64,000 bases of DNA. Origin: Sulfurimonas hongkongensis (lineage in GTDB: Bacteria; Campylobacterota; Campylobacteria; Campylobacterales; Sulfurimonadaceae). The number at the start of each line of letters is the position of its first letter. Position 1 is the stretch's first letter. The stretch is taken from positions 62,001 to 126,000 of the forward strand of contig NZ_AUPZ01000013.1 in NCBI RefSeq assembly GCF_000445475.1, given 5' to 3'. The notes beneath the pieces were generated by a model, which did not search any database, had not been told where the DNA came from, and worked only from the letters and a program-made list of their open reading frames with translations. The position numbers and the translations under genes were made by a program. Positions 42,113 through 48,585 of the stretch are shown here, piece after piece.

Positions 42113-42318
42113 AAAACGGACTTGTTCGTTTTGACAATACAACTCTCGAAAAGTTTACTTTTCGTAGCTTTAGGGGGTTGAAAGGGACTTTAGTCCCTCC
42201 TATTAAAACGGACTTGTTCGTTTTGACAATACAACTCTCGAAAAGTTTACTTTTCGTAGCTTTAGGGGGTTGGAAGGGACTTTAGTCCCTCCTATTAAAA
42301 CGGACTTGTTCGTTTTAA
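42113..42318. repeat. 92-bp tandem repeat (2.2 copies), each with three hairpins
   Basis: Two full units, 42113-42204 and 42205-42296, differ at one base; a third start (42297-42318) is cut short. Each unit holds three hairpins in a row. AAAACG/CGTTTT has the loop GACTTGTT, CGAAAAG/CTTTTCG has the loop TTTA, and AGGGACT/AGTCCCT has a TT loop. The repeat fills most of the 235 bases between the small Tat gene and fdhA. Confidence 0.95.
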
Positions 42319-42345: not shown

Positions 42346-45144
42346 ATGAAAATGCTTAAAAGCTTTGGAAGAAGAAGTTTTTTAAAAATGGCTTCACTTG
42401 CAACGGCTACAACAGCAACTTCTGCATTTGCTAGCAATAGCGTCTTAAGAGGTGCAACCAAGGATGAGATTAGAAATCCATATCCTGGCTCAAAACTCAT
42501 TAAGACCATTTGTACGCACTGTTCAGTAGGTTGTGGAGTTATAGCTGAAGTTCAAAACAATGTATGGGTTCGTCAAGAAGTAGCTCACGATCACCCTATT
42601 AGTCATGGAGGTCACTGCTGTAAAGGTGCCGATATGATTGATAAAGTTAGAGGTACAAACAGACTCAAATATCCAACTGCTAAAGTAAATGGCAAATGGA
42701 CAAGACTTGACTGGGATAAGGCTATGAGCCAGATTTCAGACCAACTCATTGGCATCAGAGAAAAATATGGTGCAGATGCAGTTCAGTTTTTAGGTTCTGC
42801 GAAATGTAGTAACGAGCAAGCTTACTATATAAGAAAGTTCGCTGCTATGTTTGGAACAAACAACATAGATCACCAAGCTAGAATTTGACATAGTCCAACA
42901 GTTGCCGGTGTGGCAAATACATGGGGTTATGGAGCTATGACAAATCATCTAGGTGATATGCAAAACTCAAAAGCTATTATAATTTTTGGAGCAAATCCAG
43001 CGTCTAATCATCCGATTGCGATGCAACATATACTCAAGTCAAAAGAGCAAAATGGTGCAAAGATTATTGTAGTCGATCCAAGATATACAAAAACTGCTGC
43101 AAAGAGTGATCTATATTGTCGCATAAGAACAGGTACTGATATTGCATTTTTATACGGAATGATAAGACTCATCCGTGATAACAAATGGTATGACAAATCT
43201 TTTATAGACTCAAGAGTCTATGGAATGGATGAGATTTTTAAAGAGTGTGAAGAATACACTCCAGAGCACGTAGAAGATGTAACAGGATGTCCAAAAGAGA
43301 TTCTTATCCAAGCTACAACTGCCTTTGCAACAGCAGATCCAGGTTGTCTTATTTGGAACCAAGGATGGACTCAACATACTGTAGGTTCATCAAACACAAG
43401 GCTAGGTTCAATCCTACAACTCGTACTTGGAAACATGGGTAAACCAGGTGGTGGAACTAATATCCTAAGAGGTCATGACAATGTTCAAGGATCTACAGAT
43501 ATGGGTTGCCTCTCTGATACTCTTCCGGGATATTATGGGCTTGCTGAGGGTTCATGGAAGTACTTTGCATCTCAATGGAAAGTGGACTATGACTGGTTAA
43601 AAGGCCGCTTTAAGTCTCAAAAGATGATGGAATCAAAAGGCTTTAGTCTGAGTCTCTGGATTCACGGTGTTTTAGATGAAGCAAATGCTAAAAACAACGC
43701 TGACACTCCTATTAAAGCACTAGTATGTATAGGAAATGGAATTTCAACTATTACTCAAACAGACAAAGTTAAAGCAGCACTTGATAAGCTAGACTTGGTT
43801 GTTTTTATAGACCCATATGTAAATGATGCTGCAGTAATTACGACAAGAGAGAACAATCTTTATATGCTACCAGCAGCATCTCAGGTTGAGTGTTCTGGAA
43901 CTGTTGTAAACACGGGAAGAACTGCACAGTGGAGAAGTAAGGTTATAGAGCCTCTTTATGAAGCAAGACCAGATGAAGAGATTCTGTTTGACTTTGCAAA
44001 AAGAATGGGTTTTTATGATGAGTATACAGCTGGTATGGGCAAAGGCAGAGAGTTTACTTGGCCAGAAGATGCAACAGATGAGATAGCTAGAATCTTAAAA
44101 ACTGTTGGTTTTCAAGGCAGAACAGCTGCAAGAGTTAAAAAGCATACTCTTAATTGGCATCTCTTTGATACAACTTCACTCAAAGGAAGAGGTCCAGTAT
44201 CTAAAGAGTATTATGGATTGCCATGGCCTTGTTGGACGCAGGAACATCCAGGAAGCCCTGTTTTATACAATGTAAATCTGCCAGTTAGTCAAGGTGGAAT
44301 GGGTTTTAGAACTAGATTTGGCACTGAGCGTAATGGTGTATCTCTACTAGCAGCTCAAGGCGTGGCACCTGTTGGTTCACGCATTAAAGGTGGATATGAT
44401 GAGATTACTTCTAAAAACATAGAAGAACTGAGTGGTATCAAGCTAACAGATGAAGAGAAGAAACTCGTTGAGGGTAAAAACTGGAAGACTGATGATAGTG
44501 GTATACTCGTTAGAAATGCTCTTGCAGCTGGACTTGCTCCTTATGGAAATGCAAGAGCTAGAACTATTGTTTGGGGCTTTAGAGATGAGATTCCAAAACA
44601 TAGAGAGCCTCTGCACTCATTTAGACATGATTTGATTAAAAGATATCCAGCAGTAGCAGATATAGAGAATCACTACAGAACAAATGTTCGTTATGCAAGT
44701 GAACAAACTGCTAAAAACTGGGTTGCAGAACATCCTATAAATATAGTCTCAGGAAGAGTAGTTGAGCATATGGGAACAGGAACTGAGACAAGAGCATCTA
44801 AGTATCTATCTGAACTCTCAGGAGAGATGTATGGTGAACTCCATCCAGAACTAGCTGCAAAACTAGGTCTCAAAGATGGCGAAATGATGTGGGTCTATGG
44901 TACTGGAGAGGGTAAGATTAAAATTAAGTGTAGATACTCTTATAGAGTAGACAAGAGTTCTGTCTTTTTACCTCAAAACTTCTCTGGAGTTTGGAGTGGC
45001 GAGAGCTTAGAGAGTAGATATCCAGCAGGAACTGCTCCTCATAGTTTTGGTGAGAACTCTAACCAAGTTACAAGTTACGGTTACGATCAACAGACTTCTT
45101 GTCCAGAGACTAAGTGTTCTTTGGTAAGAATTGAGAGAGCATAG
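42346..45144 (+). CDS. fdhA: Formate dehydrogenase large subunit, selenoprotein
   Basis: A 932-residue molybdo/tungsto-enzyme read through an in-frame UGA. It has a Tat signal (RR at 9-10, GRRSFLKM) and a 4Fe-4S site formed by C56, C59, C63 and C91. Codon 181 (42886-42888) is TGA in the context ARI-U-HSPTVAG, exactly where this family has selenocysteine or cysteine. A SECIS-like hairpin follows. Downstream domains continue in the same frame to the C-terminal molybdopterin-binding region (ELHPELAAKLGLKDGEMMWVYG). It oxidises formate in the periplasm. It would appear as two separate genes if UGA were taken as stop. Confidence 0.96.
42886..42916 (+). promoter_or_regulatory. Selenocysteine UGA and bacterial SECIS hairpin in fdhA
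   Basis: UGA at 42886-42888 is followed by a hairpin, TTGCC (42902-42906) with GGCAA (42912-42916) and loop GGTGT. The loop GGU falls at +19 to +21 after the UGA. From memory, this is the position and apical sequence (GGUCU) of the E. coli fdhF element that SelB binds. Confidence 0.88.
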
Positions 45145-45154
45145 GAGAAGTAAA

Positions 45155-45745
45155 ATGAGTAAGCCAGAATATGCGAGAATGAAATTTTACTGCGATGAGA
45201 ATCTTTGTATTGACTGTAATGGTTGTGTTGTAGCTTGTAAAGAGGCTCACGAGGTTCCAGTTGGAGTAAATAGAAGAAAAGTTGTAACTATCAACGAGGG
45301 TATTGTAGGTAAAGAGATGTCTATCTCTATGGCATGTATGCATTGTAGTGATGCGCCATGTCAGCAAGTATGTCCAGTTGATTGTTTTTATATAAGGGTG
45401 GACGGCATAGTCCTTCACGATAAAGATAAGTGTATAGGTTGTGGATATTGTCTATTTGCTTGTCCTTTTGGTGCACCGCAGTTTCCTCAAGATGGAGCTT
45501 TTGGTACAAAAGGTAAGATGGACAAATGTACAATGTGTGCAGGTGGACCAGAGGAGACTAACTCACCTGCAGAGTTTGCAAAATATGGACAAAACAGAAT
45601 TGCAGAGGGCAAAGTCCCAATGTGTGCATCTATGTGTTCAACTAAGGCCTTGTTAGTTGGTGATTCAAACGAAGTAGCGGCCATTAAAACATATAGATCT
45701 GTAGCTCATGGAAAAGGCATATCAACACAGTCTTACGGTTGGTAG
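45155..45745 (+). CDS. fdhB: Formate dehydrogenase iron-sulfur subunit
   Basis: A 196-residue four-cluster ferredoxin-type subunit: CIDCNGCVVACKEAHEVP, CMHCSDAPCQQVCPVDC, CIGCGYCLFACPFG and CTMCAGG with a later CASMC. It passes electrons from FdhA to the cytochrome b. ATG 45155 is chosen (GGAG seven bases upstream, overlapping the fdhA stop); an ATG at 45131 lies within fdhA. Confidence 0.95.
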   Translation: MSKPEYARMKFYCDENLCIDCNGCVVACKEAHEVPVGVNRRKVVTINEGIVGKEMSISMACMHCSDAPCQQVCPVDCFYIRVDGIVLHDKDKCIGCGYCLFACPFGAPQFPQDGAFGTKGKMDKCTMCAGGPEETNSPAEFAKYGQNRIAEGKVPMCASMCSTKALLVGDSNEVAAIKTYRSVAHGKGISTQSYGW

Positions 45746-45754
45746 GAGTATATT

Positions 45755-46702
45755 ATGCAAAGTAGTACATTTTTTACTAGAAACAAAGCATATATACTTA
45801 CCCTTTTAGGTCTAGGTCTACTTGGTTTTATATTTGTCGGATTTATGATGATTATGGATTGGGAATACTTTTTAAAGTATCCCCTCCATGTTATTTTAAC
45901 CGGAGATACTAGCGGAGTTCTCTCTGAGCCTACTTCAAACTATCAAGCTATGGTAAATGCAGCTTTTGGTCCTAGTTACAACTCTATTGCCCCGGAGATT
46001 ATTCGTGCTAGTAATGAGAGACAAGAGTTTATATGGTGGGTTTTTGTAGCTGAGATTGCAATCTTTTGTTTTATGTATGCAAAGTACGGAAGAAGAGTTG
46101 CAATAGTTACAAATCCTAGTGATGAAGTTGAAGTTTTTTCTCTATTTCATAGAGCTGTGATTTGGTTAAATATTATCATAATTTCTGCTTTAATAATTAC
46201 AGGTTTTAACATAACTTGGGGTATGCGCTCAGGTGGGGGAGATCTAGTAGCTTTTCTAAGAGCCTCACATGAGATGCTAGGTCTTGTCTGGCTTCCTTTA
46301 TGGTTTGCTATGACCATTATCGCATTTAAAGATGCAAAGATTCTTTTTAATAACTCTTTAACAAAAAAGTTGATTTTAAAAGGCAATTATTCGCCAATGA
46401 GAAGAGTTATCTTTATAGTCTTTGTTATTATGGGGGCTAGTCTACTCTTTAGCGGTATAGTTATTTGGTATATTGATCCTGATGCCTTTACGCACAGTGA
46501 GTTTATTCAACTTAAGAGATATTTACTCTATGTCCATTTTGGAGCTAGCGTACTGATCATGTTTTTCTTGATGGATTTTGTTTACTCGGTAATGATCGCA
46601 GTAAAAGGAAATCTTAAAGGTTTAATCACAGGAAAGTATCCACGAGAACATCTTGAGCAGTTAGCACCAGATGTTTTAGAGGATATTGAAGAAAAAAGGT
46701 AG
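45755..46702 (+). CDS. fdhC: Formate dehydrogenase cytochrome b subunit
   Basis: A 315-residue membrane protein with an N-terminal helix and four further helices typical of the FdnI/FdoI di-heme cytochrome b family. Histidines that could bind heme are in LFHRAVIWLN, SHEMLGLVWLPLW and YVHFGASVLIMFF. It hands electrons to menaquinone. It follows fdhB by nine bases and precedes fdhD by six. Confidence 0.93.
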   Translation: MQSSTFFTRNKAYILTLLGLGLLGFIFVGFMMIMDWEYFLKYPLHVILTGDTSGVLSEPTSNYQAMVNAAFGPSYNSIAPEIIRASNERQEFIWWVFVAEIAIFCFMYAKYGRRVAIVTNPSDEVEVFSLFHRAVIWLNIIIISALIITGFNITWGMRSGGGDLVAFLRASHEMLGLVWLPLWFAMTIIAFKDAKILFNNSLTKKLILKGNYSPMRRVIFIVFVIMGASLLFSGIVIWYIDPDAFTHSEFIQLKRYLLYVHFGASVLIMFFLMDFVYSVMIAVKGNLKGLITGKYPREHLEQLAPDVLEDIEEKR

Positions 46703-46708
46703 TCTGGC

Positions 46709-47539
46709 ATGACTAAATTAATGACAATCACAGAGATTTTACAACTGCATCCTAACTTAGGTGAGCACACTAAAAGAGTGGTCATAGAGAGGTTTGATTT
46801 AGATGGAGTCGATACCTTTGAAGATTATGTTATAAAAGAGCAAAGAGTCAAGTTTTTTCTAAATGGAGTAAAGTTTCTATCAGTTATGTGCATCGCAAAA
46901 TATCAAGATGCACATATTGTAGGTTTTTTACTCTCAGAAGCTGTTATAAAGAGTCTTGATGATGTTAAGAGTCTTAAAGTTAGTGATGATGGGCTAAGTG
47001 TTTATGTAGATGCAGATGTCTCACAAGAGGGTTATGATAATCTCTTTAAAGAAAAGACTCTAACCTCAGGCTGTTGTATCGGTGTAACAGGAAATGCAGA
47101 GGAGCTTTTTAAATGCTCATTTATTAGCACCGACTACACTATTAGTGCAGAAGATGCACTAAAGACAATGAGAAGTTTTTCAAAGCCATCTGAGCTATTT
47201 GATAACACTGGTTGTGTGCACAAAGCAAGGCTTGTTTTAGAAGATGGTAGCTCTTTTGAAGCCGAGGACATAGGAAGACACAACGCTATTGATAAAGTTG
47301 TTGGTCTTGCATGCTTATCTAGAAAAGATATTCAAAGATCTGTTTTATATGCAAGCGGAAGATTATCTATGGAGATGGTGGTAAAGTGTGTTATGCACAA
47401 GATTCCCATAGTGATATCTAAAGCCGCTGTTACATTTCAAGGTATAAAAGCAGCAAATGAACATGGCATCACACTTGTCGGCTTTGCAAGAGGAAATAAG
47501 ATGAATCTATATACTCATTCAGCTAGAATAGGAGTATAA
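46709..47539 (+). CDS. fdhD: Formate dehydrogenase sulfurtransferase FdhD, divergent active-site loop
   Basis: A 276-residue protein that in E. coli moves sulfur from the cysteine desulfurase IscS to the FdhA molybdenum cofactor. EDIGRHNAIDKVVG and YASGRLSMEMVVKCVMHKIPIVISKAAVT are the diagnostic motifs. The active loop normally reads as a CxxC (C121 and C124 in E. coli); here it reads SGCCIGVTGN, with adjacent C122 and C123. The first essential cysteine is kept, the spacing of the second changed. Encoded directly after fdhC. Confidence 0.92.
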   Translation: MTKLMTITEILQLHPNLGEHTKRVVIERFDLDGVDTFEDYVIKEQRVKFFLNGVKFLSVMCIAKYQDAHIVGFLLSEAVIKSLDDVKSLKVSDDGLSVYVDADVSQEGYDNLFKEKTLTSGCCIGVTGNAEELFKCSFISTDYTISAEDALKTMRSFSKPSELFDNTGCVHKARLVLEDGSSFEAEDIGRHNAIDKVVGLACLSRKDIQRSVLYASGRLSMEMVVKCVMHKIPIVISKAAVTFQGIKAANEHGITLVGFARGNKMNLYTHSARIGV

Positions 47540-47550
47540 AAAAGATTTTC

Positions 47551-47595
47551 GTAGGTACTTCCATCTGCTTCTTTTAGCTAAGAAGAAGTACCTAC
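47551..47595 (+). promoter_or_regulatory. Hairpin between fdhD and the desulfurase-like gene
   Basis: GTAGGTACTTC (47551-47561) pairs perfectly with GAAGTACCTAC (47585-47595). An inner CTTCT/AGAAG pairing extends it. No T run follows, so it is probably not a terminator. It ends 15 bases before the next start and may control or separate that gene. Confidence 0.6.
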
Positions 47596-47610: not shown

Positions 47611-48585
47611 ATGCTATATCTAAACAAATTACAATATAATCCACTTATAAACATAGAACTATCAAACTCACTCTCTCTAAATGCACTAGAGCAAAATCAA
47701 GAATATGAAAAACTTTGTTTAGACTATCAAACAAAGTACAAACATAAGATGATAAAAACATTCCCATTTTCAAAAATGGGTTTTTTAGGTCTTTTTCTTG
47801 AGTTAGATGCAAAGATTGCAATTAGTCGGGGTGAGAGCGAAGCTGTTGTAGAAGCTGGTTTACTGTATGAAAAGCTTGGTTTTAAGCTTATATGGCTTGA
47901 GTTAAATAGAGATGGAAGTGTAGACTTATCTAAACTAGTAGATGCAGAGTTTATTTTTATCTCATCTTATGTGATGGATACCTTTGTCAAAACAGATATA
48001 AAAGGGATAAAAAAAATAACAGATGCAAAGATAATTTCTAATGCATCTGCTCACTTTGATGAGAATAGCGATGCTATTTATTTTGACTCTTACAAATTAA
48101 CAGGCTTTGCTCTTAGCGGAGTTTTACTTTTTGGTGATGAGATATTTGAGCTAACAAGTATAGGCTTTATGGATACTATTGCACTAAAACTCTGCTTTGA
48201 TGGGCTAAAGATGCAAAGCTTTAATTTTGAGTTAAAAGCTAAGTTTTTAAAAGAGTTAAAGAAGAGTTTTAAAGAGGATATTTACTTTTTTGTTTCTCCT
48301 ACTTCCACACTTGAATACTCTTTGCATTTTGGACTAAAACATATAAAAGCTAGAGAGTTTATAAGAACTCTAGCACTTTGCAAAATCTTTATAACAAATG
48401 GAGAGGGATGTTCACTAGGACTTGCAAAACCATCAAGAGTTATCCGAGCCATGGGTTATAGTGATGAGCAAAGTAGAAATTCTATTGAGTTTTCTTTTAT
48501 GAATGAGATAAGCGATGAAAGGATAGAGAGTATAGTAAAGACTATGCGCCTAAAATATACTCAGCTTATCTCTTTTAATGATTGA
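47611..48585 (+). CDS. Divergent cysteine desulfurase-like PLP protein
   Basis: A 324-residue protein clearly related to the NifS/IscS class but reduced. Matching blocks: ISRGESEAVVEAGLLYEKLGFKLIWLELNRDGSVDL corresponds to IscS substrate-region residues, summarised by its core EKLGFKLIWLELNRDG. SYK162LTG is at the PLP-lysine position. NGEGC267SLGLAKPSRVIRAMGYSDEQSRNSI is at the active-cysteine loop, core GEGCSLG. The N-terminal DxAATT motif and the PLP-stacking His are replaced. It is downstream of fdhD and could be a dedicated sulfur or selenium donor. Activity is unproven. Confidence 0.75.
   Translation: MLYLNKLQYNPLINIELSNSLSLNALEQNQEYEKLCLDYQTKYKHKMIKTFPFSKMGFLGLFLELDAKIAISRGESEAVVEAGLLYEKLGFKLIWLELNRDGSVDLSKLVDAEFIFISSYVMDTFVKTDIKGIKKITDAKIISNASAHFDENSDAIYFDSYKLTGFALSGVLLFGDEIFELTSIGFMDTIALKLCFDGLKMQSFNFELKAKFLKELKKSFKEDIYFFVSPTSTLEYSLHFGLKHIKAREFIRTLALCKIFITNGEGCSLGLAKPSRVIRAMGYSDEQSRNSIEFSFMNEISDERIESIVKTMRLKYTQLISFND

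What the first reader, a model, noticed from the sequence alone, without database searches (positions are those of the whole stretch)
47611..48585. Reduced cysteine desulfurase-like protein linked to fdhD
The protein keeps a lysine at the PLP site (K162 in SYKLTG) and a cysteine at the active loop (C267 in GEGCSLG) but has lost the N-terminal signature and the PLP-stacking histidine, and is about 80 residues shorter than IscS. FdhD needs persulfide sulfur from a desulfurase; FdhA also needs selenium. A dedicated donor for the island, or a non-catalytic scaffold, are both possible and would be of interest.
Basis: partly seen in the sequence, partly recalled or inferred. Interest (0 to 1): 0.65.

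Follow-up and report, generated by a model that had tools for sequence, protein, structure and literature searches.

The report
Desulfurase-derived partner of formate-dehydrogenase maturation
Next to a formate-dehydrogenase operon sits a worn-down relative of the enzymes that take sulfur from cysteine: it has lost most of its catalytic site but has always kept the one cysteine that carries sulfur, and it travels with one particular type of the sulfur-inserting protein FdhD, so it is probably a sulfur go-between rather than an enzyme.

Summary
The ORF is real: 47611-48585, 324 aa, 71 nt after fdhD. It is a degenerate class-I cysteine desulfurase (IscS/NifS fold; AF2 pLDDT 89, Foldseek E about 1e-18). 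Against the genome's own NifS it has lost the N-terminal signature, ATE, H104, N155, D180, Q183, H205, T242 and R354 (E. coli numbering). It keeps the PLP lysine only in the Arcobacter-type lineage; Helicobacter relatives have N/S there, one Sulfurimonadaceae relative has R, and a short form lacks most of the large domain. The Cys-loop cysteine is invariant. The family was found only in Campylobacterota. It sits in fdhABCD operons with Sec-type fdhA, or as selA-selB-X-moeA in Helicobacter, where fdhD lies elsewhere. In 200 genomes of the order, 29 of 31 carriers have FdhD (both exceptions are drafts). All carrier FdhDs fall on one side of a 100/100 branch in the FdhD tree and non-carrier FdhDs on the other; one contig-truncated case is undecided. 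SelB-positive, FdhD-negative genomes lack it. Best reading: a non-catalytic persulfide relay or docking partner for one FdhD subtype, in sulfuration of the formate-dehydrogenase Mo/W cofactor. The nearest precedent is the lysine-less IscS of Archaeoglobus. Function is inferred, not shown.

The parts
47611..48585 (+). degenerate cysteine-desulfurase homologue (called X in the report), 324 aa
48094..48096 (+). codon of K162 (AAA), position of the PLP lysine (K206 in E. coli IscS); kept only in the Arcobacter-type lineage and G137
48409..48411 (+). codon of C267 (TGT), position of the persulfide cysteine (C328 in E. coli IscS); invariant in the family
46709..47539 (+). fdhD, sulfurtransferase/chaperone of formate dehydrogenase; carrier-type loop SGCCIGVTGN
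45755..46702 (+). fdhC, membrane subunit
   Evidence: synteny
45155..45745 (+). fdhB, Fe-S subunit
   Evidence: synteny
42346..45144 (+). fdhA, Sec-type formate dehydrogenase read through TGA at 42886-42888
47551..47595 (+). hairpin between fdhD and X (11-bp arms, -20.6 kcal/mol, z -3.4), no T-run after it

Best explanation
The protein is a non-catalytic descendant of a class-I cysteine desulfurase that has become an obligate partner of one FdhD subtype. The genome's real desulfurase (NifS here, SufS in the Arcobacter-type genome examined) makes the persulfide. X accepts it on the cysteine of its mobile loop (C267) and hands it to the loop cysteine of FdhD, which then sulfurates the Mo/W-bis-MGD cofactor of the Sec-type formate dehydrogenase. 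Shown here: homology and fold, loss of the PLP site, invariance of the Cys loop, operon context, and one-to-one match with an FdhD subtype. Inferred: that C267 carries a persulfide, the direction of transfer, and physical contact with FdhD and NifS/SufS.
For: (1) Own NifS compared with X: H102->S76, N153->M122, D178->S143, Q181->A/S, S201->D159, H203->Y161, R236 and T239 lost, R352->E293; only K204->K162 and C326->C267 remain. In E. coli IscS, H104Q, Q183E and K206A each abolish desulfurase activity (PMC9978102). (2) PLP-site residues are lost by different routes: Arcobacter-type keeps K but not H; most Helicobacter members keep H but have N/S for K; the short form lacks most of the large domain; L078 has R. 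The Cys loop NG..C......PS, the AR of the KAR motif and C-terminal Q318 stay (from a search that did not require Cys). (3) The genome has one good NifS, beside nifU, so X is not needed as the general desulfurase. (4) Operon context fdhABCD-X, fdhABCD-p140-modE-X-moeA-tup/mod, or selA-selB-X-moeA: all formate-dehydrogenase biogenesis. (5) 29 of 31 carriers have FdhD; SelB+ FdhD- genomes lack X in 14 of 16, both exceptions being drafts. (6) FdhDs of carriers and non-carriers are separated by one branch with 100/100 support (62 against 29), and their Cys-loop motif differs, also in Helicobacter where the genes are unlinked. (7) E. coli FdhD takes sulfur from IscS (PMC10609526, PMC6239281).
Against: K162 is kept in 54 of 55 Arcobacter-type and G137 sequences (L078 has R), so something still constrains it there. 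No biochemical data exist. The FdhD split is one evolutionary event, so shared descent explains much of the match. Several Campylobacterota families have FdhD and SelB without X, so the function is dispensable in principle. The Helicobacter order selA-selB-X-moeA also fits selenium or Moco roles.
Confidence: 0.52

Rival explanations
1. X is a still active, divergent PLP enzyme: a dedicated cysteine desulfurase or selenocysteine lyase for the formate-dehydrogenase island, at least in the lineage that keeps K162.
For: YK[LI][ST]G is conserved in the Arcobacter-type sequences and the fold is intact.
Against: Residues equivalent to H104 and Q183, each essential in IscS, are lost, as are those of D180, H205, T242 and R354. 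L078 in the same lineage has R at K162, and whole sub-families lack the lysine.
Confidence: 0.1
2. X is a selenium carrier: it takes selenide or a selenopersulfide on C267 and feeds SelD for selenocysteine, which FdhA needs.
For: All carriers but one (75% complete) have SelB; in Helicobacter X lies directly after selA-selB; every readable fdhA operon with X holds a TGA-type fdhA (L056 shows a Cys-type copy only, with its upstream part cut off).
Against: SelB+ FdhD- genomes lack X (14 of 16, both exceptions fragmented), and X follows FdhD subtype. Many SelB+ FdhD+ genomes make do without it.
Confidence: 0.16
3. X does not relay sulfur but acts as an adaptor or regulatory subunit, for example in a heterodimer with NifS, or as a docking or Moco-handing partner between MoeA and FdhD, with C267 as ligand or regulator.
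For: moeA is next door in most loci; the invariant AR of the KAR motif and the C-terminal Q need not serve persulfide chemistry; A. fulgidus IscS, lacking the lysine, supplies a cysteine ligand rather than sulfur (PMC7585200).
Against: The window and several other loci have no moeA next to X. The short form lacks most of the large domain that a NifS-like dimer would use.
Confidence: 0.17

Closest known systems
Class-I cysteine desulfurases IscS/NifS/NFS1
   Same: Fold, topology, small-domain C-terminus, and a Cys loop with the cysteine at the same place.
   Different: N-terminal signature, PLP pocket and substrate-binding residues lost; 80 residues shorter; about 11-17% identity in structural alignment.
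Archaeoglobus fulgidus IscS (4HVK, 4EB5, 4R5F)
   Same: A natural IscS relative without a working PLP site that keeps its loop cysteine (PMC7585200).
   Different: It swaps the lysine for Asp and works with IscU in Fe-S assembly; X lost almost the whole pocket and is tied to FdhD and formate dehydrogenase.
IscS-FdhD pair of E. coli
   Same: A desulfurase-fold protein and FdhD working on sulfuration of Mo-bis-MGD for formate dehydrogenase (if the best explanation holds).
   Different: IscS is a working general desulfurase; X looks catalytically dead and is dedicated to FdhD.
XdhC-NifS4 pair and eukaryotic Moco sulfurase (MOCOS/ABA3)
   Same: NifS-like protein devoted to sulfuration of a molybdenum cofactor (PMC10609526).
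   Different: Those are active desulfurases for xanthine-oxidase-family enzymes; X has no MOSC domain and no intact PLP site.

Membership tests
Class-I cysteine desulfurase (IscS/NifS) | Aminotransferase class V fold | tested here: met
   AF2 pLDDT 89.3, pTM 0.88; top Foldseek hits are IscS/NFS1/NifS, TMq 0.67-0.79
Class-I cysteine desulfurase (IscS/NifS) | Curated family score reached | tested here: not met
   Pfam Aminotran_5 13.3 bits (cut-off 21.5); TIGR02006 42.8 bits (cut-off 643)
Class-I cysteine desulfurase (IscS/NifS) | PLP lysine | tested here: inconclusive
   Present in the window (K162), but N/S in Helicobacter relatives, R in L078, absent in the short form
Class-I cysteine desulfurase (IscS/NifS) | PLP-pocket residues H104, D180, Q183, S203, H205, T242 | tested here: not met
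   S76, S143, A145/S146, D159, Y161, F186 in the window
Class-I cysteine desulfurase (IscS/NifS) | Substrate-binding N155 and R354 | tested here: not met
   M122 and E293; the Arg is S, T, C, V or E in all aligned relatives
Class-I cysteine desulfurase (IscS/NifS) | Long mobile loop with the persulfide cysteine | tested here: met
   C267 invariant and aligned with C326 of own NifS
Class-I cysteine desulfurase (IscS/NifS) | Desulfurase activity | not testable with these tools
   needs purified protein
Selenocysteine lyase | Intact PLP site | tested here: not met
   PLP pocket lost; structural hits to selenocysteine lyase rank below IscS; activity itself not testable
FdhD-dependent formate-dehydrogenase maturation factor (functional class) | Co-occurrence and co-inheritance with FdhD | tested here: met
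   29 of 31 carriers; FdhD tree 62 against 29 on one 100/100 branch
FdhD-dependent formate-dehydrogenase maturation factor (functional class) | Formate dehydrogenase activity depends on it | not testable with these tools
   needs a gene deletion
Moco sulfurase (MOCOS/ABA3) | NifS-like domain fused to MOSC domain | tested here: not met
   324 aa, single NifS-like fold; no other Pfam domain

The most novel reading that the evidence does not exclude
A cysteine desulfurase has been turned into a dedicated, non-catalytic persulfide carrier for cofactor sulfuration, with progressive loss of the PLP site down to a short form of about 225 residues that keeps little more than the Cys-loop domain: a pseudo-desulfurase sulfur relay specific for FdhD.
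Probability: 0.45. Interest if true: 0.7.

Novelty: new variant of a known kind. Interest (0 to 1): 0.56.

Why it matters
How FdhD gets its sulfur outside E. coli is unsettled: R. capsulatus FdsC forms no stable complex with IscS, and many FdhDs lack the CXXC motif, having a CC motif, a single cysteine or none (PMC6239281, PMC10609526). A desulfurase-fold protein with a dead catalytic site that is co-inherited with one FdhD subtype, including FdhDs with the CC motif, offers a testable answer. It would also show how an enzyme can be cut down to its sulfur-carrying loop.

Tried and rejected
Pseudogene: rejected; about 80 distinct sequences with invariant motifs and open frames. A profile-sequence comparison and the profile-profile one slipped in the middle of the large domain and did not align K162 with the PLP lysine; three MAFFT runs and the strand order of the model do. 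Cysteine invariance from the whole-collection scan is circular because the search pattern demanded Cys; the claim rests, which did not. L069, labelled Pseudomonadaceae, is an Arcobacter contig by its identical FdhD and was not counted as another phylum. G001, first taken as an exception (carrier-type FdhD, no X), has its fdhD cut off by the contig end. Plasmid search: no match. No paper naming this gene family was found. The hairpin before X is not a terminator by its lack of a T-run.

Full report
What is there. Window 47611-48585 (+) is an intact ORF of 324 aa, 71 nt after fdhD. The operon is a ferredoxin-like protein (39522), a TorD/NarJ-type chaperone (41188; PF02613), fdhA read through an in-frame TGA (42346-45144), fdhB, fdhC, fdhD and then the protein in question, called X here. 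The FdhD call is firm (NF001943, 313 bits against a cut-off of 269).

Is the resemblance real? Pfam gives only a sub-threshold Aminotran_5 match; NCBIfam IscS reaches 42.8 bits, with its best stretch at residues 191-318, the small domain. E. coli IscS is the best PDB sequence match. With 27 sequences as alignment, AlphaFold2 gives pLDDT 89.3 and pTM 0.88, and Foldseek places it among IscS, NFS1 and NifS (E about 1e-18, TM 0.67-0.79 by query length, 11-17% identity).

The catalytic site. The genome has one convincing cysteine desulfurase, a NifS directly upstream of a nifU-like gene. Three MAFFT strategies agree on the mapping of this NifS onto X (they differ only by one residue at Q181): H102->S76, N153->M122, D178->S143, Q181->A145/S146, S201->D159, H203->Y161, R236->S183, T239->F186, R352->E293, with the ATE motif deleted. 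Only K204->K162 and C326->C267 remain. In E. coli IscS the single changes H104Q, Q183E and K206A abolish activity (PMC9978102). Across the family K162 is not kept: N or S in Helicobacter relatives, R in the Sulfurimonadaceae relative L078 (codon AGA), no equivalent in the short form. Most Helicobacter members keep the stacking histidine that the Arcobacter type has lost. So the PLP site has decayed in different ways, while the Cys loop (N263, G264, C267, P274, S275), A247-R248 of the KAR motif, R289 and Q318 are invariant in an alignment collected without requiring the cysteine. The short form (about 225 aa) still folds with high confidence (pLDDT 90.9) and still finds NFS1/IscS, but with poor superposition (TM about 0.6, rmsd mostly 7-11 A), as expected if most of the large domain is gone.

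Who has it. A scan of 84,980 prokaryote species with a Cys-loop pattern found 64 loci, all Campylobacterota by record or content: Arcobacteraceae, a few MAGs labelled Sulfurimonas or Sulfurospirillum, Helicobacter and other Helicobacteraceae. In 200 genomes of the window's order, the single-sequence and the profile search find the same 31 carriers, and the profile separates them cleanly from true NifS (at least 160 bits against at most 23). The other sampled members of the window's genus lack both X and FdhD; fdhD and X of the window are nearest to a sister Sulfurimonas and then to Arcobacteraceae, which suggests that the operon was acquired as a unit (inference).

Neighbours. In Arcobacteraceae the order is fdhA-B-C-D, an unnamed protein of about 140 aa, a ModE-like HTH protein, X, moeA, then tungstate/molybdate ABC transporters; in some, X follows fdhD directly, as in the window. 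In Helicobacter it is a selA-like ORF, selB, X, moeA, with fdhD elsewhere. All these neighbours serve formate-dehydrogenase biogenesis. Every operon in which fdhA could be read has a TGA-type fdhA (two MAG loci have an extra Cys-type copy), except the truncated contig L056, where only a Cys-type copy is visible.

Co-occurrence. X 31, FdhD 66, SelB over cut-off 78 of 200 genomes. 29 of 31 carriers have FdhD; the two others are drafts, one with X at a contig end. Thirty of 31 have SelB; the exception is 75% complete. Of 16 SelB+ FdhD- genomes only those two drafts have X. So X follows FdhD more closely than it follows selenocysteine use.

FdhD subtype. FdhDs from carriers have a loop of the form SGC[CG][GVI]G[VI][TA][GA][NT], including Helicobacter, where fdhD and X are unlinked; FdhDs from non-carriers have SGCG[KR] followed by a different sequence. 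In a maximum-likelihood tree, 62 carrier FdhDs and 29 non-carrier FdhDs lie on opposite sides of one branch with 100/100 support. Adding seven more non-carriers and two outgroups leaves one on the carrier side, G001, whose fdhD is cut off by the contig end, so that X cannot be judged. This is one evolutionary split, so it shows long co-inheritance rather than many independent events; the retention of X after the linkage was broken in Helicobacter, and the nesting of Sulfurimonas-labelled and Sulfurospirillum-labelled loci among Arcobacteraceae with X included, argue for a functional tie.

Mechanism. In E. coli, FdhD takes sulfur from IscS and sulfurates Mo-bis-MGD (PMC10609526). The importance of its two loop cysteines is disputed: PMC6239281 found them not essential and the CXXC motif not conserved. 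The best-supported reading for X is a non-catalytic persulfide relay or docking partner that links the general desulfurase with this FdhD subtype. Shown: fold, decay of the PLP site, constancy of the Cys loop, context, match with FdhD subtype. Inferred: persulfide on C267, the direction of transfer, partners. A selenium-carrier role and an adaptor role without sulfur transfer remain open; an active PLP desulfurase is unlikely.

Compared with what is known. X is descended from class-I cysteine desulfurases but fails their catalytic membership tests. A natural IscS without desulfurase activity is known (A. fulgidus, Lys to Asp; PMC7585200), and NifS-like proteins devoted to molybdenum cofactors are known (NifS4 with XdhC, eukaryotic Moco sulfurase), but I found no paper that describes a catalytically dead desulfurase tied to FdhD. 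Hence 'new variant of a known kind'.

Noticed in passing
L188:1480-2649 (-), genome G005: A NifS-like ORF of 389 aa directly upstream of nifU has lost the PLP lysine, histidine, substrate arginine and also the loop cysteine (AYSNTVYPYG for ASTGSACAS): an apparently dead NifS paired with NifU.
   Followed up: partly
L033:8626-9051 and equivalents: An unnamed protein of about 140 aa with two C-x-LG-x-F repeats lies between fdhD and a ModE-like HTH gene in many Campylobacterota fdh operons, with or without X; no Pfam match.
   Followed up: partly
L049:3352-9120 and L105: Tandem fdhA genes in Helicobacteraceae MAGs, the first Sec-type (TGA), the second Cys-type.
   Followed up: no
L058 and L067: A second copy of X, or of its operon, within the same locus.
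   Followed up: no
L189, genome G008: This Arcobacter-type genome has SufS in a suf operon and no good NifS match, so X is found with different general desulfurases.
   Followed up: partly
47551-47595: Stable hairpin with 11-bp arms between fdhD and X; the sister locus L051 has several related hairpin copies in a longer spacer.
   Followed up: partly
42113-42316: A 92-bp unit repeated 2.2 times at 99% identity in the spacer before fdhA.
   Followed up: no
L069: A contig labelled Pseudomonadaceae carries an Arcobacter fdh operon (FdhD identical to L042): probable binning contamination.
   Followed up: partly
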